Assembly: GCA_950295325.1 (NCBI GenBank)
Contig: OX485806.1
Coordinates: forward strand, 26,228,001-26,292,000
Source of the DNA: Polytrichum commune
Taxonomy: Eukaryota; Streptophyta; Polytrichopsida; Polytrichales; Polytrichaceae
DNA: 64,000 bases
Reading direction: 5' to 3'
Shown: one piece after another, positions 4,697 to 31,300 of the stretch
How positions within the stretch are numbered: the first letter of the stretch is position 1
How the letters are laid out: every line of letters starts with the position of its first letter
Notes under the pieces: generated by a model
Told to the model about the DNA's origin: nothing
Database searches by the model: none
Seen by the model: the letters and a program-made list of their open reading frames with translations, nothing else
Program-made: the position numbers and the translations under genes

Positions 4697-4998
4697 TAGT
4701 TTTTGGGGATTGCTATTTCCACACCTTTTTGGCTAGATTCACACCTTTTTGCCGGTTCGGTTGCCGTGTCACTGAGGCGCTATATATGAGATTCTTCATG
4801 GTGCATCCGGACCGTTGATCCACCAAGGCCCATCCAAGGGCCTCAATGATCCTAGATGGCGGTGGGGCGGGGGTGGTGCTTGCCACCAAGGCGGGGTGGG
4901 GCCGTGGGCCTCATGTCTTTTTTGGGGAGGCCGGATTTAGGGTAGTGTCGGGCCTAGTGGCTAGGCGGGCGCAGTGGCTAGGCCTACTTATTATATAA

Positions 4999-5202
4999 CT
5001 AGTTGGTTACCCTTACTCTACTTACTAAATAACTAGTTGGTTAGCCTTACTCTACTTACTAAATGACTAGTTGGTTACCCTTACTCTACTTACTAAATGA
5101 CTAGTTGGTTACCCTTACTCTACTTATTAAATGACTAGTTGGTTACCCTTACTCTGCTTACTAAATAACTAGTTGGTTACCCTTACTCTACTTATGGTCA
5201 CT
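4999..5202 (+). repeat. 34-bp tandem array in the foldback loop (6 copies)
   Basis: The anchor CTAGTTGGTT recurs at 4999, 5033, 5067, 5101, 5135 and 5169, an exact 34-bp period. Two inverted copies lie near 5395-5460 on the other side of the loop. The array may reflect replication slippage or unequal exchange inside the element. Confidence 0.92.
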
Positions 5203-5209
5203 CTTCTTA

Positions 5210-5395
5210 ATTGGACATGTATATTTGAGTGGTATATGTGCAAGTCTTGAAGTTAGGTATGGACACCTATATGATCATTATTGACACCATAATCTTCACT
5301 TTGATAATGACTAAGATATTCATATGAGCTCCTAAATTTTGATTTGGATTTGCTAACCATCTCGTACTAACCTACTTGTTTCATATCATGCCATA
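5210..5395 (+). repeat. Dispersed repeat family, copy inside the foldback loop
   Basis: This segment resembles 23310-23650 along much of its length. It shares the CTTAATTGGACA-like block, the ATATTTGAGTGGTAT block, the TCTTCACTTTG / AAGATATTCATAT block and CTAACCATCTCGTACTAA. Shorter relatives lie near 37745, 46455 and 63490. The family has no obvious coding content. Confidence 0.7.
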
Positions 5396-5762
5396 AGTAG
5401 AGTAAGGCTAACCAACTAGTTATTCAATAAGTAGAGTAAGGGTGACCATCTAGTTATATAATAAGTAGGCCTAGCCACTGGGCCCGCCTAGCCACTAGGC
5501 CCGACACCACCCTAAATCCGGCCTCCCCAAAAAAGACATGAGGCCCACGGCCCCACCCCGCCTTGGTGGCAAGCACCACCCCCGCCCCCCACCCCACCGC
5601 CACCTAGGATCATTGAGGCCCTTGGATGGGCCTTGGTGGATCAACGGTCCGGATGCACCATGAAGAATCTCATATATAGCGCCTCAGTGACACGGCAACC
5701 GAACCGGCAAAAAGGTGTGAATCTAGCCAAAAAGGTGTGGAAATAGCAATCCCCTAGTTTTT

Positions 5763-6844: not shown

Positions 6845-7080
6845 AGATATGGTGTTTGAGGATCACGTGCGTTCAAGCCCCTATTACATGGGGGCTATGT
6901 ATGTAAATTTTGTTGATTATCGTAGGCCTATGTTTACCTAAATTTCTAAATTTTGTTCATTTCATGTGCCCTACTTTTCATTATAAATTTTTTGTTGGAC
7001 TAATTTTTTGTAGGCTATCTTCATTATAAATACAACATCAGACCCTATTTTCTAGGGGTTTAGACATGAATTTTCCAAAA

Positions 7081-7401
7081 GCGCCGCTTCTAGCATGGAT
7101 TCTGACTTAGAGGCGTTCAGTCATAATCCTACACATGGTAGCTTCGCGCCACTGGCTTTTCAACCAAGCGCAATGACCAATTATGTGAATCAACGGTTCC
7201 TCTCGTACTAAGTTGAATTACTATTGCGGCACCGTGCATCAGTAGGGTAAAACTAACCTGTCTCACGACAGTCTAAACCCAGCTCACGTTCCCTATTGGT
7301 GGGTGAACAATCCAACACTTGGTGAATTCTGCTTCACAATGATAGGAAGAGTCGACATCAAAGGATCAAAAATCAACGTCGCTATGAACGCTTGGCTGCC
7401 A
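7081..7401 (-). pseudogene. 25S rRNA fragment inside the transposon
   Basis: On the minus strand this is about 320 bp of the 3' domain of nuclear large-subunit rRNA, seen here as its reverse complement. Recognisable conserved blocks include those giving TCTCGTACTA, CAGTAGGGTAAAACTAACC and GGTGGGTGAACAATCC on the plus strand. Similarity stops abruptly near 7401, where the normal continuation is missing, and begins at about 7081. It carries scattered substitutions (for example the GGCACCGTGCATCAG stretch), so it is a non-functional fragment. It lies about 250 bp inside the left TIR of the P-like element. It may be a captured piece of rDNA or an rRNA-derived retroposon. Confidence 0.88.
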
Positions 7402-8048
7402 TCCACCCATTGCTAATCGGGATAACCAAGGGAACAAATTTTCCTACTTAGACAATTCCTCATCAAGAAAAACACTTCACATCGAGAAGACAGATGAAAA
7501 CTCCAGCTGCAACAACATCTCATGTACAAAGGGTCAACTAAAAGCCTGGAATTAATTGCCGTGTGTTGAATCATGAAGTTCAAACACACAAAACTACGCC
7601 AAATATATGTAATCACTAAGATGGACCATTCTGATCCAAAATCCTTCCTCATCAACATACACATGGTTTAGGGTTATGAAATGAAAACATTCATCATGCA
7701 CGAGTCCATACAAAAAAGCAGTCCAAGAGGAATAGGGTTAGGATAACATTCATTGAACAATATAGGGTTGTGTTCAAAAACACAATATTGTTCATTTACA
7801 AGGCTCACAACTGAACCTACGTGTCTACTTTGTAATATTGCTATACACTTCCATATCTATGCAAGGAAAAAAGTTTCCTAAACTCTAAGCCCTTTCATTG
7901 CTTCAACCCTGAATGCGCAATTTTTTTGGAAACCTGCATAACACCATAAATCCATTGATGTCAGTGGCATTCCAAGTTGATTATGTGCACACAAATGTTC
8001 ACAAACAATCGCAAAGTTCCGAAAAATCAAGGGGTAGGGTCATTTACC

Positions 8049-9510: not shown

Positions 9511-12500
9511 CTATTCCACTCTCTTGTTCAATACATACTCATTCAAGTTCTCAGCATCACCCCTGTCCAAGCTGTAAACTTGAGTCTCATACTTATAAGT
9601 GAGAGTGACATTAGTAATTATCGACTCAAGACTAATCCATTTAGAGTCTGTTAAGTTATACTTGAATTTATATTGACCGGGTGCTCGGGTGTAATAATGC
9701 AAAATGACTTCTACACTAGAAATCAGGGTATTTTTTTTGCCTGTTAATACCTCCCTGTTCGCAATATCCACGGGGTGCTTCAGAGACCCCCACGACGTCC
9801 CACTAGCACGCCTTCGCATCTTTTGTATGCGGCCAACCCACCAGGTTCCCTCGTCCACCCCCTTTAGTGTTGACGCGACCCTGCCAGACTTTTTAGCTAG
9901 AGAATTTCCCCTTCTCTTTGCGGCAGTAACTGTAGACGGCCTCGTAATTGTAGTGCGTTGCAAAAAGTATACTCCGACATCAGACCCGATTTCGACAAAA
10001 CATGTATTAGAGCATTGAGCTGCTCTTAGATAATCCTCGCTATTATTAAAATACAACGAATTCCTTACCCGTGTCAACCTGTCCTTCGACAAGAATGGGT
10101 TACCATTCAGCTGCCCGACCAACGTAGATTTGAATATCCTGTGCCCATCAAACTCCACAAAGGCTTCTACTATAGCTGGGATAGGGAGTGAACGAACATG
10201 TCCTTCGTGGTTGCTCAACATCTCGGAAATTATGTCTCGCGTCTCACTCTCCACGATTGCAAGAGCTGGGACCCCGTCATCAATGAGGTCCTCTTCCACA
10301 TGCTCTACTGCGGCAGGTTCAGTATCATGCAGCTCACCCTGGAGCTGTGACTCGTCCTCCTTTTCATTTATATCTTCTCGAAGGACTTCCATGTCGCCAT
10401 CCTCACCGCGTACAGGCTTAGAAGTGGCTGCCCAGGCAAAAGATAGTTTGTCCGCCCGCTCAACTATCCATGGTTTATCAAACCATACCCTTAGCTTCGC
10501 AGCAGCTTGTGGATTGGGGGCCATGTTTAAACTAGTAATCACCCTTTGCGCCTCTTTCAGTCCCTGCTTTAAGGCTTGAACAACGCCCTCATTGGTTGAC
10601 ACAAGACTGTAGTCTCCAAGGTTGGGCTCCCCCTCTCCTTCACCCAGTGGATGCAACTTTGCCCAGATGTTCTTCATCTTGTTGTGTGCCCTCGCGAACT
10701 TGATCCCATTATGTCCATATTCAATCTGCGACAAATGGTTAACAGTATTTGCACAACCAACTAATTCATGAAAATCATAAGCCCTCTCCATGCCTACCAT
10801 GCCCCCAACCTTTGAGAAAAATATCTCGCATGAGTCACTACCAGTTAAGTGGAATGGCACACTCAAGTGAGGATACTTGTCACGGAAATGGCAAATAAGC
10901 AGAACTATGAAATGACACGACATCTGTATATCCAAGAAGCATTGTTGACTAACGAAGTTCACTTTCGGATCCACATGTTCAGTATTTCCCATAACACCAT
11001 GGTTACCGTGCCTCATCCACAATTTCCAGATTCGGAAAAAAAAGGAGACCTTACCTGCTTTCACAATCCGAGATCGAAGGTCGTGACTTGGGGAAAGAAA
11101 TATATCAATATAGTCAGCACATATCTCTAGGTACATCTCGGTTCCAAGTGTGCGTTCACGGTGCAAATCAGTAGACACACGAAAGGACCGCAGGCAGTCT
11201 CGAACTTTCTATGAGCATAATCTTTGAGCACTAGCCCAATTCTGCCGGTCCTTTCTGTCATAATCCTCCTGAAGTAACCCATGTTGATCCAGTGTGAATC
11301 GGTTGAACACTTGGCAAATGTGTTGGTGAAGGGCCAGATCACCCCCTAATCGCAACGTACGCACATTGCTATCAATGGGATTCAACAATTTCTTACCATT
11401 GTGAATATAGTCTTGGTCATGCAAGCCGGTTGCTTCTCCATCGACATTCATAGATGAAGTGAAAACCCAGCCTTCCCAATCCACACTTAACCTCGGCCCC
11501 TCTAAACCTCTATAATCTAGAAGCATTAACTGCCTCCTACGGGAGTCCCCATCACTAGCATGTCCTATAATGGGACCCACAGCCGCATAGCAATGTTTTG
11601 TCCACAACTCATCGATTCTATCCCATTGTTGTCTAACCCAACCTGAATCAAAACAACCGCAGGTACAAGAAGCAACCAACACCAATCGAGGAAGTTTATC
11701 ATGCAAGGGGTTCACAACAATTACTCTTGCAAACCCCCCCACCTTGTCAAGCCTAAACGAGTCTACCATTTTATTGTACCCTACCTCACCAACTCCGACA
11801 GTGGGCTTATAATGAGGGATACAAGTGTGATTCTCTTTCGGCCCACAAAACCCCACCAGAGTATCCCACCTCGCCTCCCAAGAAACCCGCCCCCTGACCT
11901 TTGTTTCATCTTCAGCAAGTATAACCGGGATGGGGCCACTTATGCCATGCGCAACTTTAGCAGCGGAATAGATGTAGGCAATGGATTCAAAGATTTCAGC
12001 ATGTTCCCCTGATATGAACTGTACGCCTTTTCTACATTCCCTTCGAATAGTGTCATAACTAGGTCCAGCAAAGTTGAGGGCAAATAAGTCACATAGACGT
12101 CGGCCCCCATAGATCCTCATTGCTTGCGAAAAACATTTAGTATTTTCGCTATAGCGATTCCCACTACCCTTCCTATTCAAGTTCCCTGCCACATCCTTCA
12201 TGAAGTCCCACAGTCCAGGTTTGCCTCCAAATGCTCCTATCCGATGGGCACTAATAATATTGTTACAGAATTTCATCAAATTTTTATATGATGAGGCATT
12301 TATGGCACTCTCACGCATCGTTGGTCTTCTGGCCTTCAATTGCACAATCCTTGTTCTAGCATGCCAGTAGTGTAGCTTTTCTAGCCGATATTTTCTAGCC
12401 AACTCTCTTGTATGTTTCGACACTTCATATACACCTAAATACCCTAACCGTATCCCTCCTGCAGTGGTTCTGTGGCCTCTCTTAACCAATGCCTGGTCCT

Positions 12501-14001
12501 CTCTTCTGATTCTCATTCTGAAATCATTTTCACGTGGGATCTGGGCACACATAGGGCAAGTCAGATTTGGGAAAGGCTCTAGTCCCATAGCCATGCGAAC
12601 ACACTTTCTATGCCGAAATGTACCATTGACATGCACAACTAAACCACGAACTTCTACATCGACACGAAGATGTGGTTCCGGATACCATTCAACACCAGAA
12701 TGGGGGTCGTTCAGTAAAGCATTCACAACATAAAAATTACCCCCATATTCAACTGTTGGACCACGATATCCATAGCACATCAAACCAACAAGAATGACCC
12801 TATTGACTACTTCAGGTGTACCTTCAACACTGTTTGATGAAGCCGTCCTAAACCATGTGTGTAGGTCACTTTGATTGGAGTGAGAACTTGCTGTGCTGGA
12901 CCTACTTGGGCGCCCAGCTCGACCCGTCCTCGCTGGTTCCTTCAGGAGTTGCTCTGCTACCTCGACAACCTTCATGTGTTTTGGACCACTGAGGTGATTT
13001 CTAAGATTCACTTCGAGTGTCTTCCGTGGTGGGTAGAGGACCATCATGTCCCTACAGTATGGGCACTTCACTTTGAACCAATAACACCTGGTATCCTCTG
13101 CCCCTAAATTCCCCAAAACTGTGAATTTTTTATGCCCATCTGGTAGAGAAGAGTTCACCCCTTCCAATATCTCAACCCCCTCTGAAATCAACCGTTTATG
13201 ATCCTCTGGAGTTAGGGTAAGAGGCCTTCCATTCTTGGCCTCAGACTGGGGGTGGTCATCGAAATTGACATTCTTGGCAGCACAAAAATTCCGAACGTGG
13301 GCTGTGCTGACAATGTGCGATCTCCTAAAATTGTTGAACAAGTTGTCGATATGTGCTTTGGTGTGATCCTTGCTGCCACCCCCGCAATCCTTTTTGCATT
13401 CCCCGCACCACAACTTCACCACTCCATTGCCATTCAAGTCGAATGTCTTCAACCACCAGTCGTGGTCAGACATGGCGACCTTCTTCAACTCCGCCCTCAA
13501 CTTCTTTGCCCTCTCCAAATATCGATCCATAACCTCAAACGGCAAGAGTTTGGACTTCAGAGGGTTGTGATCTACCTCGGCGGAGTCTGCGCTTCCAGTA
13601 ACCCTCGATGAACCCACGGGCAGGAGAGGTGGATCCACGCCTACGCCTCCGGCTCCGCCTTCATTTTCCAAAGCAGGGGCGGCGTCCACAGTGGTGGAAG
13701 TGAACAACCCCTCTTCAAGTCGACGGCGCTTGTTTCCAGGAAGATCACCTTCGGCGACCTTGATAACATGCACTTCTTTCTCAAACCCGTTCAGGCGCTC
13801 CAACTTCTTGCGCACGCGCCGCTTATCTTCGGCGTCCCAAAAATCAAAAGGCCACTCTAATGCATCGTTCGTTTCTAGTGCAATCCGAAGTGCCTGCAGC
13901 GTCGACGCGCCTCCAATGTTCACCTTCCCAAAGTACTCCGGATCTGCACCCTCCCCCTCCAACGTCCACAGCGTGATCCTATCGGGCGGAATCACAGCCA
14001 T
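9511..14001 (-). pseudogene. P-like DDE transposase, one in-frame stop
   Basis: From the ATG at 14001 one frame runs to 9511 (about 1,495 codons), interrupted once by TAG at 11211-11209. The halves before and after are 930 and 565 codons in the same frame. Residues about 8-80 look like a beta-grasp (ubiquitin/CRN-like) domain. Two Cys/His zinc-binding regions follow: C199-x2-C202 with H228, H235 and C240, and C313-x2-C316 with H336 and H342. CPMC at about 482 is a possible third. The RNase-H-like core shows D698 (AEDETK), D817 (ASDGD), a D864-x2-H867 motif (QDYIHNGKKLLN) and, after the stop, E at about 1059 (SDSCEIFFSKVGG, like the ENFF block of P-element/THAP9 transposases). The C-terminus adds acidic and basic stretches. 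I assign the P-like superfamily from motif order; hAT is the main alternative. The TAG could be a mutation or, less likely, readthrough. Confidence 0.78.
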
Positions 14002-14184
14002 ACCTCAAATCCAAAGCTGGAAGGTACCACTAAAACCCTACAGCAAACCTTAGTCTAAGCTCGCACACCAACTGCAACTTTAGCAATGTTCATTCAAGCA
14101 ACAAAAGAAACCTCAAATACAAACTGCAATGTTAACAATGATAAATCAACAAACACAAGATACCTCACACACAAACTACAAGGT

Positions 14185-23750: not shown

Positions 23751-24040
23751 GTGTGGGGGGGGGGTCATAAACCTTGACTTAGTCCAATGAGATTGATGGG
23801 GTGAATCAACCACAAACCATAGGAATCATCAACAATCCCAAGTTGGTGTACACACACTATAGAACTTGATGCAAATTGTAGAAGATATCTTTCTATGTTA
23901 TTTTAGTAGTGCCCAGAATGAACACAATGCTCTTGAGATCCTTGTCGTGTAAATAGCGATCGTGTGTCACTGCAGCTCGAGTACCAACCACCACTAACAA
24001 ACAACACTAAAACATAGCAAAGTCACACATAAACAACACA

Positions 24041-24060
24041 CCTCGACATGCCCCCCCTTA
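24041..24060 (-). repeat. Polypurine tract and start of the 3' LTR of the Gypsy element
   Basis: On the minus strand AAGGGGGGGCA is followed by TGTCGAGG, the usual arrangement of a polypurine tract next to an LTR beginning with TG. It lies about 270 bp past the last pol codon. The far end of this LTR is not clear, and I found no matching 5' LTR on the other side. Confidence 0.45.
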
Positions 24061-24332
24061 GCTGACTATGGAGTCCCGCCAAGCAGCTAGGACCAATGCC
24101 AATCTAAAGAGCATGGATAATGAAAGATTGCTCCGCAACTAACTAGTGTGGTAAACGTTATTCTAAGGAACTGTAGGTTGGGTGCAAGGTGAGCCTCATC
24201 CTTAATCGCCTCTGATGGTTGGCCATCAGATTCCACAGAATTAATTTCACCGTCTCATGTCGATTGCGTCTCTAAGCCATAACTCCTCATCTTCCATTTG
24301 AGCAGGCACAAGATGATGAAAACCACACATGA

Positions 24333-26339
24333 TCATTCAGTACGATTGGTGGGAGCACCGCGTACCGAAGATCCTCGACAGCGAGGATAACTCCACTGTC
24401 CAGATGGTAGAGAAGTCAAGGGTGGCCTCAAGCATGCATTGTGCCAACCACGTTGACACTGATCACACAAGAGCATAGTAGCCGCCCCTTTCTTCTCTCC
24501 ACACACAAAACATGGAAGACCCTCTGGCACGACGGCCAATTCAGGATGAATTGTACCCTCAATGGGTAGATGACATGGGGCACAATTCTTGGAATGCTCG
24601 TAACATTCCCTACCATCCTTGCCTTCCAACAACAACAAACCACTCGGCAACACCTCCTTCACCCGAAGGATAGTGCGCCCCGCCCTGACATCCAATGTCG
24701 TAGGTGCCTCACGTTGGAGAGAGACATAATCCCCCTGCCGGAATCTCCGCAACTGAGGTCGGTAAGCACCACTGCGAATGCGTGCATAACGCAATGTGTC
24801 ACGGTGCTGAGCAATGGACAAATTCTCCAAGGCCATAGGCATGGCCCTCTGGAAGAATTGAGCCCGCTCCTGCAAACACTCTGCCCAAATGTCTAGATCA
24901 TCCAAGTTCACAACATGAGCTAGTTTTTCCCGAATAGAACTCGGGAGTATAGGCTCACGTCCATACAACAACTGATACGGGTTGTAGGATGCCAAAGAGG
25001 CCTGCCTACTAAATCGATAGCTCATAGCAATCCAAGGCAACATAAGGTCCCAATCCCGGTGGTTTTCCCGAAGTAATCCATACTTCCTCAAGCCACGCTT
25101 GGTTGTCTGAACAACCCGTTCAGCCAAGCCATCTGCCTCCGGATGATCCCGAGAGGTGGTGCGGTGATCTATGAGCGCCTTAATGCACAACTCCTCAAAA
25201 GCACCAAGGAACTCCCTCCCTTGGTCTGTCAACACCTCAGCCGGTGCTCCAAAACGTGCTAACACACGATCCAAAAAGGCGGCCGCGGCCAACTCTGCAG
25301 AGTTTTGGGGTAGAGCAACAAGCTCAATCCACTTGCTAAAATGCTCCACCATCACCAAAACGTACTTTGCTTCACGTGGTGTAACGACCAACGGCCCTGC
25401 AAAGTCCAGCGACCAATGGTAGCCCAATCCCATGATAGGTAAGGGCTGTAACTGAGGTGATAAGGTGTTAAAGCTAGACCTGACCCGGTCACAAACTTCA
25501 CACCTCCCGACATATGCAGCCACTTGCTGATACATGCCAGTCCACCAATATTGGCCACGCAACATCGAATATGTCATGCGTATGCCAAAATGGCCAAGTT
25601 CCTCGTGCACTTGTCGCACCAATGAGGCCCTCTGATCCGACCTAGGAACAACACGCCTTGTCCCATCCGGCCACAATCGAAATAACAAACCGTTCTCCCA
25701 ACGGAACCTTGTTATTCGATGTCCAATCCTATCCCTTTCCATTGCCAAAATAGACAAAGGAAAGGTACCCTGTTGAAGCTTATGCAATGCAAGAAGATCC
25801 TCCCATATATCCGCAATAGCTTGAGGCCGATCAGTCTCATCATCCGAGCCCTGTATCGGAATCTCAACAGATGCACCAGAAAATAAAGTAAGGTAGGCAG
25901 CCGCGTGCCAACCTAGAACCGCCTCTCGATCACAATCTCCATGCCACCTGGCCCCGGTCAAATCTTCATCCGAAGGACTTGGATTGCGTGAGAATCCATC
26001 TGCATCCATGTTGGTAATCCCAGTACGGTGTACCACCTCAAAGTCATACTCCTGGAGCAACAAAGCCCACCTGGCAAGCTTGCCAGTAAGCTTATCCGAT
26101 TTCATGAGCCACCGTAACGGCTGATGGTCAGTCACCAAAGTAAAGTGTTGACCATAAAGATATGGCTGGAAATGGGCAATAGCCCACACCGCCGCCAATG
26201 TTTCTCCCTCATAGGACGAATAATTGGCCTCCGCCGTGTTGTTGCTTTGCGACGCGTAAGCAACAACATACTCCCGGCCAACATCATCTTTCTGAGTAAG
26301 AACTGCTCCCAAACCCAATGAGCTCCAGTCTGTATGCAA
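24333..26339 (-). pseudogene. RNase H - integrase - PHD finger part of Gypsy pol
   Basis: This 668-codon stretch follows the previous one in frame after a TAG. RNase H motifs are HTDWSSLGLGAVL, YEGETLAAVWAI and TDHQPLRWL. The integrase has the H-H/CxxC zinc-binding region (GHFGIRMT ... CEVCD), then catalytic D in DFAGP, D in TDQGREF and E in ADGLAERVVQ. A small basic C-terminal domain follows. The tail holds a PHD finger: CFVC, CDQCQRGWHNAC, then WSYPRC. The expected W-x-C-P-x-C ending has Tyr in place of the seventh zinc ligand. PHD fingers read histone H3 tails, so a targeting role is likely by analogy with the chromodomains of other Gypsy elements. The stop comes 14 codons after the finger. 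Confidence 0.85.
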
Positions 26340-26769
26340 CTAGAAAAATTTGGAGACATCTGGACGTCGAAGCACTGGAGCAGTATCCAGTTTTTGCTTC
26401 AATGTCTCAAATGCCTGTTGCTGCTCACGACCCCAAGTCCAAGGTTGGTCCTTGCTCGTGAGAATGGTGAGCGGCTTGGCAATCAAGCTAAAGTTCTTGA
26501 CGAATCGCCGATAGTAATTCGCCAAGCCCAAGAAAGCACGAAGTCTCGGCACATCTACCGGTGCCGGAATCTTCTGCAATGCGTCCACCTTAGCTTGTTG
26601 TACCCCAAGACCTCCTGGAACAATCATATGCCCCAAATATGCCAACCGGTCATGCAAAAACTTACACTTGCCGTGGTGCAAGCGCAATCCCCACCGCTGC
26701 AACCGTTCAAAAACGGCTTGCAGATGCCTCACATGCTCCTGTGGTGTTGTGCTGAAGATGATCACATCG
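26340..26769 (-). pseudogene. Gypsy reverse transcriptase, C-terminal part
   Basis: It continues the reverse transcriptase after the solo LTR with DVIIFSTTPQEHVRHL, GLRLHHGKCKFLHDRLAYLG (the primer-grip/thumb region) and FLGLANYYRRFVKNFS (the connection). It ends at TAG (26342-26340), just before the RNase H HTDWSS block. The LTR plus TSD is 978 bp, a multiple of three, so the frame on both sides is the same. Confidence 0.88.
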
Positions 26770-27742
26770 TGTCGCAACCCTTGCTAGCCCCCTTAGCAAT
26801 CTTGCCAATTTTCTTTTCTAGCAAAGGTTACGAGCGCTAACCCTTCGCATACCGCCATGCTAATGGTTAGCTCCTCTTACCCCGGACCATTAATTCAAAG
26901 GAGGGGAACCAACCCTCCTACTTTGCTTTCGGGACTCACCCCTTAATCGGTAACCCATTTCTTCGATGTGGACTTCCATCCATGGAAGTCCAATCCTATG
27001 TTGATCATCGCGTTGCCGGAGCAACACTACAACAACCCGAACCATACTAGGCAACTATGGCCTCACAATGGGCCAATGCCCATGGAGGCCGTGCCGTTCG
27101 GCCTCGGGTGGGTGAGGCCACACGACCTCACCCATATAAGCCTCTAGGACTTCACGCGGGGCCCCTACCCCACCGTCAACCAACCTCTTGTCTCTCTACC
27201 AAGAGTTGGGGCCAAGTGGACATTTTCCTTTAGCTGCTGGGCCTAGAACCCCCCAGCAGCTTCAGACCATCATAACTTCCTTGTATGATGTCTGATCATA
27301 ACAACCAACCACTCCATCTTCATCTACGCTTCACGTAGATGCCGATGGACACCTCACTTGCCCCATTCGGGCAAGTATTGAGGAAGTAATGCCTGTTTGA
27401 ACCTTGGCAGTCCCGGGAATCACTCCCAGGCACTTCTGTACCAGGGCGCTGTCCCGGGACAGCGCCCCACTCAAATGGCCATAACTCCTAGCTCACACCT
27501 CCGATTGAGGTGTTCTTGGGCTTTCTAGAATCACCACGCCATGAGCTACGCATAGCTCATGGCCTTACCCTTGTGCCTCCTAGTCTTTGTGGGTGGGAGG
27601 CGTTCCCAACGCCCGGGGCCCTCACCCACACTAGGATCACTTGGGCCCTCTCACCAACGGCGCCACAAGTCCCGGGTGTCACTCCGGGGTCCCCCTTGTG
27701 CCCATGGTGTTTCGGGCACTCCTCATGGAGAGGTGCGCGACA
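26770..27742. mobile_element. Solo LTR inserted in the reverse transcriptase
   Basis: A 973-bp block starts TGTCGC and ends GCGACA, the canonical TG...CA inverted ends of an LTR. It is flanked by the 5-bp direct repeat CATCG (26765-26769 and 27743-27747). It has no coding capacity. It separates the YIDD of the reverse transcriptase from the rest of the domain, and removing it with one TSD restores the reading register. It is more GC-rich than the window and includes a 24-bp perfect palindrome at 27444-27467. A single LTR left by recombination between two LTRs is the simplest reading. Confidence 0.85.
27444..27467. repeat. 24-bp perfect palindrome in the solo LTR
   Basis: The centre is GTCCCGGGAC, extended on both sides by GGGCGCT/AGCGCCC. 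It could be a protein-binding or promoter element of the LTR. Confidence 0.85.
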
Positions 27743-28457
27743 CATCGTCTATGTAACACCGAGCAAAGGGCAAGCCAGAGAGAACCTGATCCATCACCCG
27801 CTGAAACTCAGCGGGTGCATTCTCTAGGCCAAATAGAAGAAACTTCCAATGGTAAAGTTGATCCTTCCCATCTTGATCAACTCCCCAAAATGCGGTTTTC
27901 ACTCGGTCTCCCACAAGTAATGGGAGTTGGTGATAGCCGGATCTCAAGTCCAACGTGCTAAAAACTCGAGCAAATCCGAGGGCATCGAACAACTCCTCCG
28001 GGATTGGCATGGGATATCGATCCGACTTGGTCTTCCGATTAACTGGACGGTAATCCCCACACATCCGCTTCTCCGTCCAATTGCCAAAGATATCCTTCTT
28101 CGATGGCATAACCGTAGCACAAGCATACTCCCCGTTGGAAAGTTCGATTAGCCCTGCTGCCAAAAGCTCTTGGCAACGAGCCTGAACGCCAATCCGTTCG
28201 AAAACACTGAGCCTGTAAGGTCTCCGAAAAATGGGATGGTCGTCCTCCAACTGAATGTGGATGGATTTTCCTTTATAACCTTCAAGATCCTGAAGGCTAA
28301 AAGCAAAACACCTACGGTACGAGCGAATAAATGCTCGTACTTTCCGTGCCTCGGCACCAGTAAGATGAGGGCCTAATTCCAATGGCCAATCATCAAACTC
28401 TGTAGTCTCCCTCTCCACCAAAGGAGAACTACCTGATGTTGGCACAGACTCTAATTG
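27743..28457 (-). pseudogene. Gypsy reverse transcriptase, N-terminal part
   Basis: Recognisable reverse transcriptase blocks appear in order: a fingers region (RPYRLSVFERIGVQ), the SNGEYACATVMPSKKD block, RMCGDYRPVNRKTKSDRYPM, FSTLDLRSGYHQL, KTAFWG, LLFGLENAPAEFQRVMDQVL, and the catalytic YIDD near 27743. The first catalytic Asp lies in STLD. It is cut at YIDDV by the solo LTR. It is joined in frame to the upstream linker across a TAG at 28460-28458. Confidence 0.92.
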
Positions 28458-28754
28458 CTAATGAGAGGAGGGAGCATTAACCATGCCCCCAGTCTCAGTG
28501 CTAGCACTAGAGTCTGGCATTTCTTCATCACCACCAATATGTGATGATGAAGCCACCACCGGAGGCGAAAAAGCCGAAGCAGTGTAAAAATGTTGAGCTC
28601 GAAGCTCCTCTATTACATGCTGCTCGAATTGAGAAATTCGTTCGGCTTCTCCAACCATGGCATGAATTCCCTCCTCAATGGATGTGGACCGCTGTGCCCC
28701 CTGACCAGAGTTCTCTGCCCCCAGAGGCAACCACTGGTCACCACAATGCCTTTG
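28458..28754 (-). pseudogene. Linker between methyltransferase and reverse transcriptase
   Basis: About 98 in-frame codons lie between two stops (TGA 28757-28755 and TAG 28460-28458). The sequence is Ser/Glu-rich and low in complexity (PPVVASSSHIGGDEEMPDSS), with no domain visible. It shares the frame of both neighbours, so it was probably part of one polyprotein. Confidence 0.6.
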
Positions 28755-29875
28755 TCATGAAAGACATAAACCAACAGTCCACACCATAGTATGAAGATCC
28801 ATGGCTTGGCCCAACACGAAGCGTCGTTGGCCTTCAGAAAGGCCAAGAGCTGCGGTGGTGCCAGTGCGAAATCCCATTGCACGCTCCCATTCATCTGCCA
28901 ATGGTTCGGTGTGGGTTTTGGTGTGAGCATCCCACACCATACCTGGCCCCCGATCGCGGAAAGCAAATGACTGTGGAAACGTCATAAATGTGGGAAAAGC
29001 CCTCCGTGGTGCCCCCACTTTGTTGACCAATGCCAATGGGGGTAAATCATCTCGGACAACCGGCAAAGAAGTCCGGTTTAGATCCAAGATGTTGTCCACA
29101 TTTTGATCAAAAGGTGGGGCACTACAGAAAATGCTGCAGCTAATGTAGATGATGGTGTGAGGTTGGTCCAAATCCACCGAGGCCGGTGGGCATAAGAACC
29201 AATGCTCGCAACATCTACAAGAATGGGATCTCCAAGGTGTTGACGAACATAATGATCGCCTTCCAACACCTTGGCCCGGGAGTCTCCGAACATAGGTACA
29301 TTCTCGAAAATATACGCTGGAGGGGAAGATTGGTGGGAATACCACCACTGCATGAGACGAATGAGGTCCCAAAATAGACTAGACCTGGGATCCTCTAGTC
29401 CTCCGCCTGCTCCAGCACGTGAATGGCCCTGGCATGGCCATCCCGCAATCACTATATCCACTGGACCTAAGTGTCTTAAATCGGCCTCACTGATGAGTGT
29501 GACATCATGAGGGAGACGTGAAAAACACCCACGAATGGCAGTTGGAGGTAACTGCTGGGGGTACAATACCATCAATTGGTGAAGATGGTGATGAGCCACA
29601 CGGGTGGACACTTGAGAGTTGTCCACATAGACATATCGTCTAACCGTGAGGCCAGCCTCCAATACGGCCGCTAAGCCTGTGCCGATACCCCCAAACAGTT
29701 CCACCAAAGTAATTCCCGCATCTGGCGGCTGCCATAAAATGGGATGTGCCAATGCCGAGAGGACACCCGGTATGACCGGTATCCTAGGAATGAGAGAGTG
29801 AACAATATCCTCGCACCTCCGAAATAGCTCGGTGGAATCACACCAAGGAGGAAGGGGATCTTGGGATGGCACACC
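28755..29875 (-). pseudogene. DNMT3-like cytosine-5 DNA methyltransferase in Gypsy pol
   Basis: This region transfers methyl groups to cytosine in the intact family. In order it shows motif I LFGGIGTG (about residue 59), motif IV GWPCQGHS with the catalytic Cys (about 147), LFWDLIRLM, motif VI FENVP (about 190), motif VIII HRPRWIWTN (about 230), then after a frameshift near 29140 PRRAFPTFMTFPQS, motif IX/X ERAMGFRTGTT and RRFVLGQAMDL. Motif I precedes motif IV, as in DNMT3 and unlike the rearranged plant DRM order. The blocks around motifs VI and VIII resemble DNMT3. A second frameshift near 29880 separates it from the protease. It ends at TGA 28757-28755. This copy cannot make the enzyme, but every key motif is preserved. 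Confidence 0.88.
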
Positions 29876-29879
29876 AATG

Positions 29880-30477
29880 CACCCTTAGGTGCCATATCCC
29901 GTTGATTGTCTGTACTCCCCATGAATACCAATGACTCCTCCAACAATGTGGGACCATAAGGCAATGTGTCCACCATAGCACCACATCCAAAAATCATAGA
30001 TAATGGTGCTATGGTCGCGGCCGCGGTGAAAGCCACGGGAATAAGTTCCCTGCGGCCATCCCCGGCTGACCAACCTGGTCGGATCCACGCCTCCTCAGTC
30101 CAGTTGTCCAAACCAAAACCAAGAGGGTAAAGTGCTTGCTGACCAACTAAAATGTCATAGTTGGTCGCATCCGTCATCGCACACCTAAAAAGAAGAGGTG
30201 CGGGTGAATCTCCAGGATTCACTCGGAAGCTAAGCTGTAATGGCTCCCGAGTATAACCTATGGCCCGCTCCACGTGACCAATGGATGTAACAATGGTGAA
30301 TGGACAGGGAGCCAAATCCTCGGCCGTCAACCCCAACTCTTGGGCAAACATCTTGCCGATCATAACTGGCTGTGCCCCTGAATCCATCATCACACAACGG
30401 GGAGCAATCTGAGTAACATTGCTCCCAGTGCGACTGACCATCAAAATGCCGGTATCATTCACCATCCGTACACTCAT
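29880..30477 (-). pseudogene. Retroviral-type aspartic protease of the Gypsy element
   Basis: The frame from 30477 codes a protease-like domain with CVMMDSGAQPVMIG (catalytic Asp in DSG), a VTSIGHVERAIGYTREPLQL flap-like region and YDILVGQQALYPLG. It leads into the methyltransferase through a frameshift near 29880; beyond that the frame is nonsense to 29671. The frame is open for some codons above 30477, but no gag-like zinc knuckle appears. Confidence 0.78.
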
Positions 30478-30480
30478 AAT

Positions 30481-31300
30481 ACGAAGGAAGCGAGTAGAAC
30501 ACTCATAATAGCTCTAAATCTCTCTTCAAATGCACACAATTAGTCAAGCTATCTTTCACTCCACCAAGGGAGAATCCAAGAGTGTAAGTAGAGGGAGAAG
30601 AATTCAAGATTTATTGCAAAATCATGCAATCTACACCTCACACAAGCTCTCTCCACATCTAGATTCATCCATCCAAATCTAGATGGATGAAATCCAACGG
30701 ATAAGGTGCGGCCGTCGACACCACATACCGTGACATCCTTAACAAACTCAATATCTCTCACCAAATAAATTCACTAATGAGTAAATCCATAGAGAGGCTA
30801 GTGCCAACACTTAAGAATTTGGCATGAAATTTTGACATTGTACATGATTTAGATATAATTTATGAAAGTCAAGATATTTTGCAATCTAAAGTAATGACAC
30901 AAGCTTGCCAAGCCCATAGTATCAAAAAGTTTGTTTTTAAAAAATTTATTCCTTTCTGTTTTTTGTCAATCTCAATCAATGACCTACATTTATGGTCCTT
31001 GAAATAAAGTAATTTCGAAGTATGTGGCTACTCACTTTGGGACCAAATATAGGTGTTGGAATTGGTTCATTTAATGGGGTTCGGTGCTTCTATCTTACAC
31101 AATTTTCTTGGACACTCTCTCTACTTGAAAAAAAAAGTAAGATTTTGTGGGATGTAAAAAAGAGATAAAGGCATGTATGCTTATTGTGGGCATAAGACCA
31201 ATTTGAGCTAAAGAACTCATTTTGCAAGAATGCAACAAAGAGAAGAGGGAGGAGACGCGAGGATAGCACGAGTTTGTGAAGTTTTGTGGAGTCCAAAATG
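30481..31300. other. Non-coding flank of the Gypsy element
   Basis: No gag, primer-binding site or LTR pair is visible. On the minus strand a TGTTGGCACTAGCC block starting near 30811 could be an unrelated LTR start. The stretch 30550-30780 looks like an untranslated leader. Confidence 0.4.

What the first reader, a model, noticed from the sequence alone, without database searches (positions are those of the whole stretch)
28755..29875. A DNMT3-like DNA methyltransferase encoded inside a Gypsy retroelement
The sequence shows motifs I, IV (Pro-Cys-Gln), VI, VIII and IX/X of cytosine-5 methyltransferases between protease and reverse transcriptase, in one reading direction and polyprotein order. 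The motif order is that of DNMT3, not of the rearranged plant DRM enzymes. Captured methyltransferases have been reported in retrotransposons of a few algal lineages; I do not know of one in this genome context. A retroelement that methylates its own or its host's DNA could be setting its own silencing state, marking its copies, or competing with the host system.
Basis: partly seen in the sequence, partly recalled or inferred. Interest (0 to 1): 0.88.

Follow-up and report, generated by a model that had tools for sequence, protein, structure and literature searches.

The report
Moss jumping gene carrying a methyltransferase
The window holds an old, broken copy of a Gypsy retrotransposon that carries a DNA-methylating enzyme of the DNMT3 type as a built-in part; other copies with full-length reading frames sit elsewhere in the same (probably moss) genome, so a transposon here brings along the kind of enzyme that hosts use to silence transposons.

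Summary
Minus strand 30735-23943 is a Gypsy element with 4-bp target-site duplications (AGGA) holding protease, a DNMT3-type cytosine methyltransferase (MTase), RT, RNase H, integrase and a PHD finger. This copy is dead: gag is deleted, frames are broken, and a 973-bp insert splits RT. The family is not: PF00145 matched at least 123 places in the 408-Mb genome (one is host DRM); 10 of 10 long-frame copies read have this domain order, and 8 with paired terminal repeats show 94.6-99.8% repeat identity and 4-bp duplications. MTase and RT distances correlate (r 0.98, 55 copies); dN/dS between lineages is about 0.1. In 55 of 57 copies the MTase ORF ends in UAG-CARYYA, the tobamovirus-type leaky stop, with RT in frame 153 nt on. 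So Gag-PR-MTase is probably the main product and RT-integrase is made by readthrough. A DNMT3-bearing Gypsy with split repeats is already published from the alga Klebsormidium (PMC5890265); this is a variant from a land plant (inferred, probably moss), with relatives in liverworts, plus the leaky stop and PHD finger. What the enzyme methylates is untested; the element's own cDNA is my leading guess.

The parts
23943..30735 (-). Whole element copy (TG...CA ends), including a 973-bp nested insert; a deletion has removed the rest of repeat A and gag
   Evidence: Ends and AGGA duplications printed; alignment to the relative L007; domain hits
30736..30739 (-). Target-site duplication AGGA, 5' side
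   Evidence: 4-bp duplications, read by eye from printed flanks, also in 8 of 8 copies with paired repeats
23939..23942 (-). Target-site duplication AGGA, 3' side
30528..30735 (-). Remnant of 5' terminal repeat A
   Evidence: matches the L007 repeat region at 30735-30705 and 30599-30543 and repeat A of an own-genome copy at 30607-30528
29815..30471 (-). Protease region (DSGAQP...YDILVG)
   Evidence: 59% identical to L007 ORF1 over 212 aa; no Pfam hit of its own; among relatives P0274 passes the gag-asp_proteas cut-off, P0270 and L007 stay below theirs
29120..29740 (-). DNMT3-type methyltransferase, N-terminal part (motifs I-VIII), ORF A
   Evidence: PF00145 E=1e-12; PDB best matches DNMT3A/B; place in the family tree
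28758..29117 (-). Methyltransferase, C-terminal part (motifs IX-X) in a second frame (ORF B), followed by a premature stop at 28755-28757
   Evidence: alignment with relatives that have an open frame
28452..28460 (-). Conserved leaky-stop context TAG CAATTA between the Gag-PR-MTase ORF and the RT ORF
   Evidence: TAG-CARYYA in 55 of 57 copies at this site; type I consensus UAG CARYYA from PMC5382211
27743..28457 (-). Reverse transcriptase, first part (up to YIDDV)
   Evidence: PF00078 E=3.7e-12; 86% identical to L007
26770..27742 (-). Nested 973-bp insert, TGTCGC...GCGACA, flanked by 5-bp CGATG duplications: LTR-like, probably a solo LTR of another element
   Evidence: no internal repeat reported in the window self-comparison; type inferred
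26343..26769 (-). Reverse transcriptase, second part
   Evidence: PF00078 E=2.4e-09
24336..26339 (-). RNase H, integrase (H2C2, rve) and C-terminal PHD finger (about 24512-24378)
   Evidence: PF17917, PF17921, PF00665, PF00628; PHD finger best PDB matches CHD4, PHF12 and KDM5-type fingers by sequence
23943..24050 (-). Single copy of repeat B at the 3' end, after a G-rich tract (copies with paired repeats have B-A-B)
   Evidence: weak: 23982-23943 matches B of an own-genome copy, 72.5%, E=0.08; terminal TTTACACGACA identical and followed by the duplication; extent inferred

Best explanation
This is a dead copy of a multi-copy Gypsy family in which a DNMT3-type cytosine methyltransferase is a permanent domain between protease and reverse transcriptase. 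Shown from sequence: domain order, target-site duplications, integral position, relatives with open frames, conservation. Strongly suggested: the MTase lies upstream of a leaky UAG, so most ribosomes make Gag-PR-MTase and a minority read through to make Gag-PR-MTase-RT-RH-INT-PHD; the MTase would thus be packaged at Gag-like amounts. Inferred: it methylates the element's newly made cDNA in the particle or at the moment of insertion, so that the copy arrives already CG-methylated, which may hide it from sensors of foreign or unmethylated DNA, or set a mild silent state that spares the host; the PHD finger on the integrase probably steers where the copy lands. My likelihoods: permanent DNMT3-type domain 0.97; UAG readthrough 0.8; catalytically active in copies with open frames 0.75; own cDNA as main target 0.4.
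For: DNMT3 class: with host DRM as control. Integral domain: 10 of 10 own-genome copies chosen for long frames show CCHC-PR-MT-RT-RH-INT-PHD (one of them has a deletion in RT); 4-bp duplications in 8 of 8 copies with both repeats found and in the window copy; L007, from a metagenome bin, has the same order in two long ORFs; 70 of the 80 best RT hits have an MTase hit upstream. Matching the lists by eye, 14 loci have both ORF1 (1356-1386 aa) and ORF2 (1045-1048 aa) open without stops. Co-inheritance: MTase and RT subfamily agree in 55 of 55 copies, counting L017 with its near-identical L022 class (53 of 55 otherwise); Mantel r 0.984, 0 of 2000 permutations reach it. Constraint between lineages: dN/dS 0.13 for MTase, 0.05-0.07 for RT/INT, 0.17 for PR; PCQ, ENV and AHRxR kept in 13 of 13 copies with the whole MTase open. 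Recent activity: repeats A and A' 94.6-99.8% identical in 8 copies. Readthrough: TAG-CARYYA in 55 of 57, RT in frame at +153 nt; 8-9 of 9 motif bases kept between three lineages against 20-32 of 60 just upstream; 24 of 55 copies, the window and L007 among them, have no in-frame ATG in the first 51 codons after the stop.
Against: No methylation, expression or protein data were available. Among young copies median MTase dN/dS is 0.59 against 0.12 for RT (14 and 16 pairs, median dS 0.026 and 0.040), so short-term constraint on the MTase is weaker. dS between lineages is near saturation, and for ORF B it could not be estimated. Some distant relatives have a changed catalytic block: P0266 and P0274 read WECQG and P0178 lacks PCQ. 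In 31 of 55 copies ORF2 has an ATG at codons 5-14, so re-initiation is not excluded there, and 3 of 55 have a stop within the first 51 codons of ORF2. CpG content does not separate open from broken copies (median 0.71 in 39, 0.69 in 18). The isolated K. nitens domain gave no methylation in yeast, which its authors call inconclusive (PMC5890265). The readthrough contexts are not independent: they fall into two main subfamilies plus L007.
Confidence: 0.62

Rival explanations
1. The MTase acts in trans on host chromatin or on other DNA, for example to change host methylation or compete with host silencing, not on the element's own cDNA.
For: The enzyme would be made in excess over RT (inferred); many copies exist (123 and 150 matches scored of 353 and 493 first-look candidates). 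That DNMT3 enzymes methylate chromatin is recalled.
Against: K. nitens, with a similar element, has a plant-like methylome (PMC5890265), though its authors note that it has fewer copies than Symbiodinium. Nuclear targeting was not tested.
Confidence: 0.2
2. The domain has lost or does not need catalysis and serves as a DNA- or RNA-binding or structural domain, as DNMT3L does for DNMT3A (recalled).
For: Weak short-term constraint (dN/dS 0.59); changed catalytic block in P0266, P0274 and P0178; no yeast activity for the K. nitens domain, inconclusive.
Against: Catalytic Cys (PCQ), ENV and R-x-R are kept in 13 of 13 copies with the MTase open, and GWPCQ is at least 90% conserved across 36 relatives.
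Confidence: 0.15
3. Chance insertion of a host DNMT3 gene or retrocopy into one Gypsy copy.
For: Only the window copy viewed alone.
Against: Same position in 10 of 10 long-frame copies and in L007; PR-MTase fusion in Calypogeia P0214, and PR, MTase and INT-PHD pieces in the Marchantia model P0190; co-inheritance with RT.
Confidence: 0.01
4. The stop between MTase and RT is not leaky; RT is expressed by re-initiation or from a separate transcript.
For: 31 of 55 copies have an in-frame ATG at codons 5-14 of ORF2.
Against: 24 of 55 have none in the first 51 codons; exact frame and spacing kept; UAG-CARYYA kept while flanks diverge.
Confidence: 0.15

Closest known systems
KnitGypsy-Dnmt3 of Klebsormidium nitens (de Mendoza et al. 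2018, PMC5890265; abstract, parts 1, 3 and 4 of 7 of its main section, and passages seen)
   Same: Gypsy domain set with an unrearranged DNMT3-type MTase; purifying selection; terminal repeats arranged as in DIRS elements (their Fig. 4 legend), as found here: A at the left end, B-A-B at the right
   Different: That paper places the MTase in the Pol ORF, and its main text holds neither 'readthrough' nor 'PHD' (figures and supplements not seen). Here the MTase ends a Gag-PR-MTase ORF before a conserved UAG-CARYYA, a PHD finger follows the integrase, and the host is inferred to be a land plant. Copy numbers and MTase sequences of the two were not compared.
SymbioDIRS-Dnmt3 and SymbioLINE-Dnmt of Symbiodinium (PMC5890265)
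   Same: Retroelement-encoded DNMTs; the DIRS type is shown to methylate CG de novo in yeast
   Different: Tyrosine-recombinase or LINE elements, not Gypsy with a DDE integrase; separate acquisitions according to that paper
Plant DRM and animal DNMT3 host enzymes
   Same: Catalytic domain class; DNMT3 colinear motif order
   Different: Host genes with their own N-terminal domains (recalled); this one sits in a retroelement polyprotein
Type I readthrough of tobamoviruses (PMC5382211, passages)
   Same: UAG followed by CARYYA
   Different: Here in a retroelement between MTase and RT

Membership tests
DNMT3 cytosine methyltransferases | Catalytic domain closest to DNMT3 among known classes | tested here: met
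   29 best of 52 and of 50 PDB sequences are DNMT3A/B/C; none named DNMT1 or CMT listed
DNMT3 cytosine methyltransferases | Motifs in order I-IV-VI-VIII-IX-X (not rearranged) | tested here: met
   DRM chains match only at residues about 226-350
DNMT3 cytosine methyltransferases | Tree position inside DNMT3 against DRM, CMT, MET1 | not tested
   No host DNMT3, CMT or MET1 sequences were fetched for a tree; profile ranking only
DNMT3 cytosine methyltransferases | Methylates cytosine in DNA | not testable with these tools
   catalytic residues present in 13 of 13 copies with the MTase open
Ty3/Gypsy LTR retrotransposon | PR-RT-RH-INT order with DDE-type (rve) integrase | tested here: met
Ty3/Gypsy LTR retrotransposon | Terminal TG...CA and short target-site duplication | tested here: met
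   4-bp duplications in 8 of 8 copies and in the window copy
Ty3/Gypsy LTR retrotransposon | Two identical complete LTRs | tested here: not met
   Split repeats A ... B-A-B in 8 of 8 copies with paired repeats, so not a standard LTR layout
KnitGypsy-Dnmt3-type element | Gypsy domains, DNMT3 MTase and DIRS-like split repeats | tested here: met
   against the Fig. 4 legend of PMC5890265
KnitGypsy-Dnmt3-type element | MTase homologous to the K. nitens element's MTase by descent | not tested
   No K. nitens MTase is named among the 120 listed of 204 hits; K. nitens integrase-PHD P0160 is 51% identical to the window's over 67% of the query
Type I stop-codon readthrough | UAG followed by CARYYA with an in-frame downstream ORF | tested here: met
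   55 of 57 copies; downstream frame open for 51 codons in 52 of 55
Type I stop-codon readthrough | Measured readthrough | not testable with these tools
   needs a reporter or proteomics

The most novel reading that the evidence does not exclude
An ancient streptophyte Gypsy lineage, found in charophyte algae, liverworts and the window's plant, carries both a DNA-methylation writer (DNMT3-type MTase, made at Gag-like amounts by a leaky UAG) and a chromatin reader (PHD finger on the integrase). It delivers already methylated copies to chosen chromatin, so the element, not only the host, writes the first epigenetic state of each new insertion.
Probability: 0.3. Interest if true: 0.82.

Novelty: new variant of a known kind. 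Interest (0 to 1): 0.62.

Why it matters
DNA methylation is usually the host's weapon against retrotransposons. A young, multi-copy family that keeps its own DNMT3-type enzyme makes it possible to ask, in what is probably a moss, whether a transposon gains from methylating DNA. The conserved leaky stop gives a concrete prediction (MTase in excess over RT), and closely similar copies allow direct tests by methylome and proteome. The metagenome relatives and liverwort copies suggest that this kind of element is widespread in bryophytes rather than an algal curiosity.

Tried and rejected
Chance insertion: rejected. Bacterial or phage origin: viral contigs gave 6 loci at 32-58% over short stretches, and 4 of 5 genome-contig loci were Streptomyces of the same sort; rejected as close relatives. 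A scan of viral contigs with the RT-INT profile found nothing. LTR pair inside the window: none by self-BLAST; explained later by the split repeats and the internal deletion. Pairing metagenome MTase and RT proteins by equal contig length was dropped because one of the pairs contradicted itself (86% MTase against 41% INT). RNA structure after the stop: L007 z -3.4, window z -1.0, not consistent, not used. CpG depletion: uninformative. The tree used 43 of 173 rows with an MTase hit (those covering motifs I-VIII); it lacks host DNMTs, so it does not place the family within DNMT3. dN/dS used the 13 of 57 copies whose whole MTase was in the stretch read and open; the 40 stretches start just before motif IV and could not qualify. 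The RT/MTase cross-match used the first 80 of 150 listed RT hits. In one search, 2 of 10 copies showed no A/A' pair in the stretch fetched. A search of the own genome for other MTase lineages (P0214) did not complete. Structure prediction was not obtained, so no fold search was run. Host name: given by no tool; the seven long contigs are 42-78 Mb in a 407.8-Mb assembly; land plant is inferred from the DRM gene and the named bryophyte relatives; that n=7 is typical of haircap mosses is recalled and unverified, and a paper search for Polytrichum listed no such paper among the 10 shown of 1,399.

Full report
What is in the window. On the minus strand, ORF A (29884..29081) matches PF00145 (E=1e-12) and holds motifs I, IV, VI and VIII; ORF B (29378..28758), in another frame, holds IX-X. 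A protease region lies upstream; RT, RNase H, integrase and a PHD finger lie downstream. Aligned to a relative with open frames (L007), the copy runs from a remnant of the terminal repeat (30735) to the repeat end at 23943, with AGGA on both sides. Most of the left repeat and gag are deleted; a 973-bp TG...CA insert with its own CGATG duplication interrupts RT at YIDD. Two frame changes and two premature stops add to this: the copy is dead. One stop, at 28458-28460, is conserved in the family (below).

The enzyme is DNMT3-type. The window's ORF A and the family profile both rank DNMT3A/B/C as the 29 best PDB sequences, ahead of DRM, HhaI and HaeIII; no chain named DNMT1 or CMT is listed. DRM matches are confined to the end of the DRM chain that carries motifs I-IV, as expected for a rearranged enzyme. 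The same test on a host exon of this genome (L078) returns DRM2 at 116.6 bits, so the test can tell the two apart. No tree with host DNMTs was made.

It is a permanent part of a multi-copy family. The window lies in a 407.8-Mb assembly of 64 contigs, seven of them 42-78 Mb long. PF00145 matched 123 places (353 first-look candidates; at least one is host DRM) and the window MTase 150 (493 candidates); both lists are capped lower bounds. I read 58 of the 123 places: 8 best-scoring, 10 chosen for long open frames, 40 in rank order; one (L078) was the host DRM. Ten of ten long-frame copies show CCHC-PR-MT-RT-RH-INT-PHD, one with a deletion in RT. In 8 of these 10 a repeat pair was found: A (about 440 bp) at the left and B-A-B at the right, A/A' 94.6-99.8% identical, TG...CA ends and 4-bp duplications in 8 of 8. 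So the family moved recently. Matching the listed frames by eye, 14 loci have ORF1 (1356-1386 aa) and ORF2 (1045-1048 aa) both open. Of the 80 best RT hits (of 150 listed), 43 have an MTase hit within 2.5 kb upstream, 27 more have one within 6 kb, 2 of the other 10 have an MTase remnant, and 8 are unresolved. MTase and RT subfamilies agree in all 55 copies compared if L017 is counted with its near-identical L022 class, otherwise in 53 of 55 (Mantel r 0.984).

Constraint. Window against L007 (NG86): dN/dS MTase 0.13, PR 0.17, RT 0.07 and 0.05, RH-INT-PHD 0.05, with dS 1.3-2.1, near saturation; ORF B could not be estimated because its synonymous sites are saturated. Among young own-genome copies the median MTase ratio is 0.59 against 0.12 for RT, on very few changes. 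The MTase is therefore kept over long times but is looser in the short term. PCQ, ENV and AHRxR stand in 13 of 13 copies with the whole MTase open; a few distant relatives (P0266, P0274, P0178) have a changed catalytic block.

A leaky stop. In L007 and in the own-genome copies with open frames, the MTase ORF, which also holds the protease and CCHC region, ends in UAG; RT-RH-INT-PHD follows in the same frame. Of 59 MTase copies examined (57 own-genome loci, the window, L007), 57 have RT in the stretch read. In 55 of these 57 the site reads TAG + CAATCA (31), CAATTA (19), CAGTTA (4) or CAACCA (1); L040 has it shifted by one base; L019 has none. All these variants obey CARYYA, the type I readthrough consensus used by tobamoviruses (PMC5382211, passages). 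Between three lineages 8-9 of 9 bases are kept at the motif against 20-32 of 60 just upstream and 35-37 of 54 downstream. ORF2 has no ATG in its first 51 codons in 24 of 55 copies, and one at codons 5-14 in 31 of 55; 3 of 55 have a stop there. I take readthrough as likely, not proven.

Relatives elsewhere. Metagenome proteins (84 hits, 82% identical over 86% of the query for the best; 204 with the profile) include PR-MTase fusions (25 of the 289 listed proteins). Named hosts: Calypogeia fissa (P0214, P0266), Marchantia polymorpha (P0190, a gene model with PR, MTase and INT-PHD pieces), and integrase relatives in Riccia, Sphagnum, Klebsormidium and Closterium. A few proteins have the MTase elsewhere: fused to RT (P0225), after RNase H (P0267), before integrase (P0247, P0178); the last three form a clade of their own (100/99), so the domain has changed place or was taken up more than once.

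Against what is known. de Mendoza et al. 2018 (PMC5890265; abstract, parts 1, 3 and 4 of 7 of its main section, and passages seen) describe DNMT3 in a Gypsy element of K. nitens with DIRS-like repeats and purifying selection, and CG methylation in yeast by dinoflagellate retroelement DNMTs; the K. nitens domain showed none there, inconclusively. My ten paper searches, seen as listings except for three papers looked into, showed no report of such an element in a moss or liverwort; the library lacks many journals. The kind is known; new here, as far as those searches go, are the land-plant family, the UAG-CARYYA arrangement that puts the MTase on the Gag side, and the PHD finger in the same element.

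How it most likely works. Shown: architecture, integration signature, recent copies, conserved catalytic residues. Likely: Gag-PR-MTase in excess, RT-integrase by readthrough. Inferred: MTase inside the particle methylates the new cDNA, so the copy enters the genome already CG-methylated. Rivals are action on host DNA and a non-catalytic role. None can be decided from sequence.

Noticed in passing
window 24378-24512 (-): PHD finger at the integrase C-terminus, common in the family (33 RT-RH-INT-PHD, 22 INT-PHD and 11 RH-INT-PHD proteins); best PDB matches CHD4, PHF12, KDM5-type. In the window copy one Cys of the CPxC pair seen in relatives is replaced.
   Followed up: partly
window 9511-14004 (-): Two large ORFs (931 and 565 aa) in one frame separated by a single TAG (followed by AAA, not a CARYYA context), with zinc-finger-like Cys patterns but no Pfam family over its cut-off (both) and no PDB match (931-aa ORF); perhaps an undescribed transposon.
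   Followed up: partly
window 6940-7453 (-): Fragment of the 3' end of a eukaryotic large-subunit rRNA gene standing alone in an AT-rich stretch.
   Followed up: no
window 4705-5754: Inverted repeat of about 360 bp, 96% identical, overlapping 34-bp tandem repeats.
   Followed up: no
L007 (CADCWO010000201.1): A plant-type Gypsy element binned in a 'Synechococcales cyanobacterium' MAG; its two ends overlap by 127 bp, as in a circular assembly path. Likewise P0009 is filed under 'Candidatus Obscuribacterales'. Both look like eukaryotic contamination of bacterial bins.
   Followed up: partly
own-genome copies L024-L039: Split terminal repeats A ... B-A-B combined with an rve integrase and 4-bp duplications; no TGG tRNA primer-binding motif (recalled) directly after the left repeat. 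How such ends are made by reverse transcription is unexplained.
   Followed up: partly
P0267, P0247, P0178: Related proteins with the MTase next to RNase H or integrase instead of between protease and RT; P0178 also lacks the usual PCQ.
   Followed up: partly
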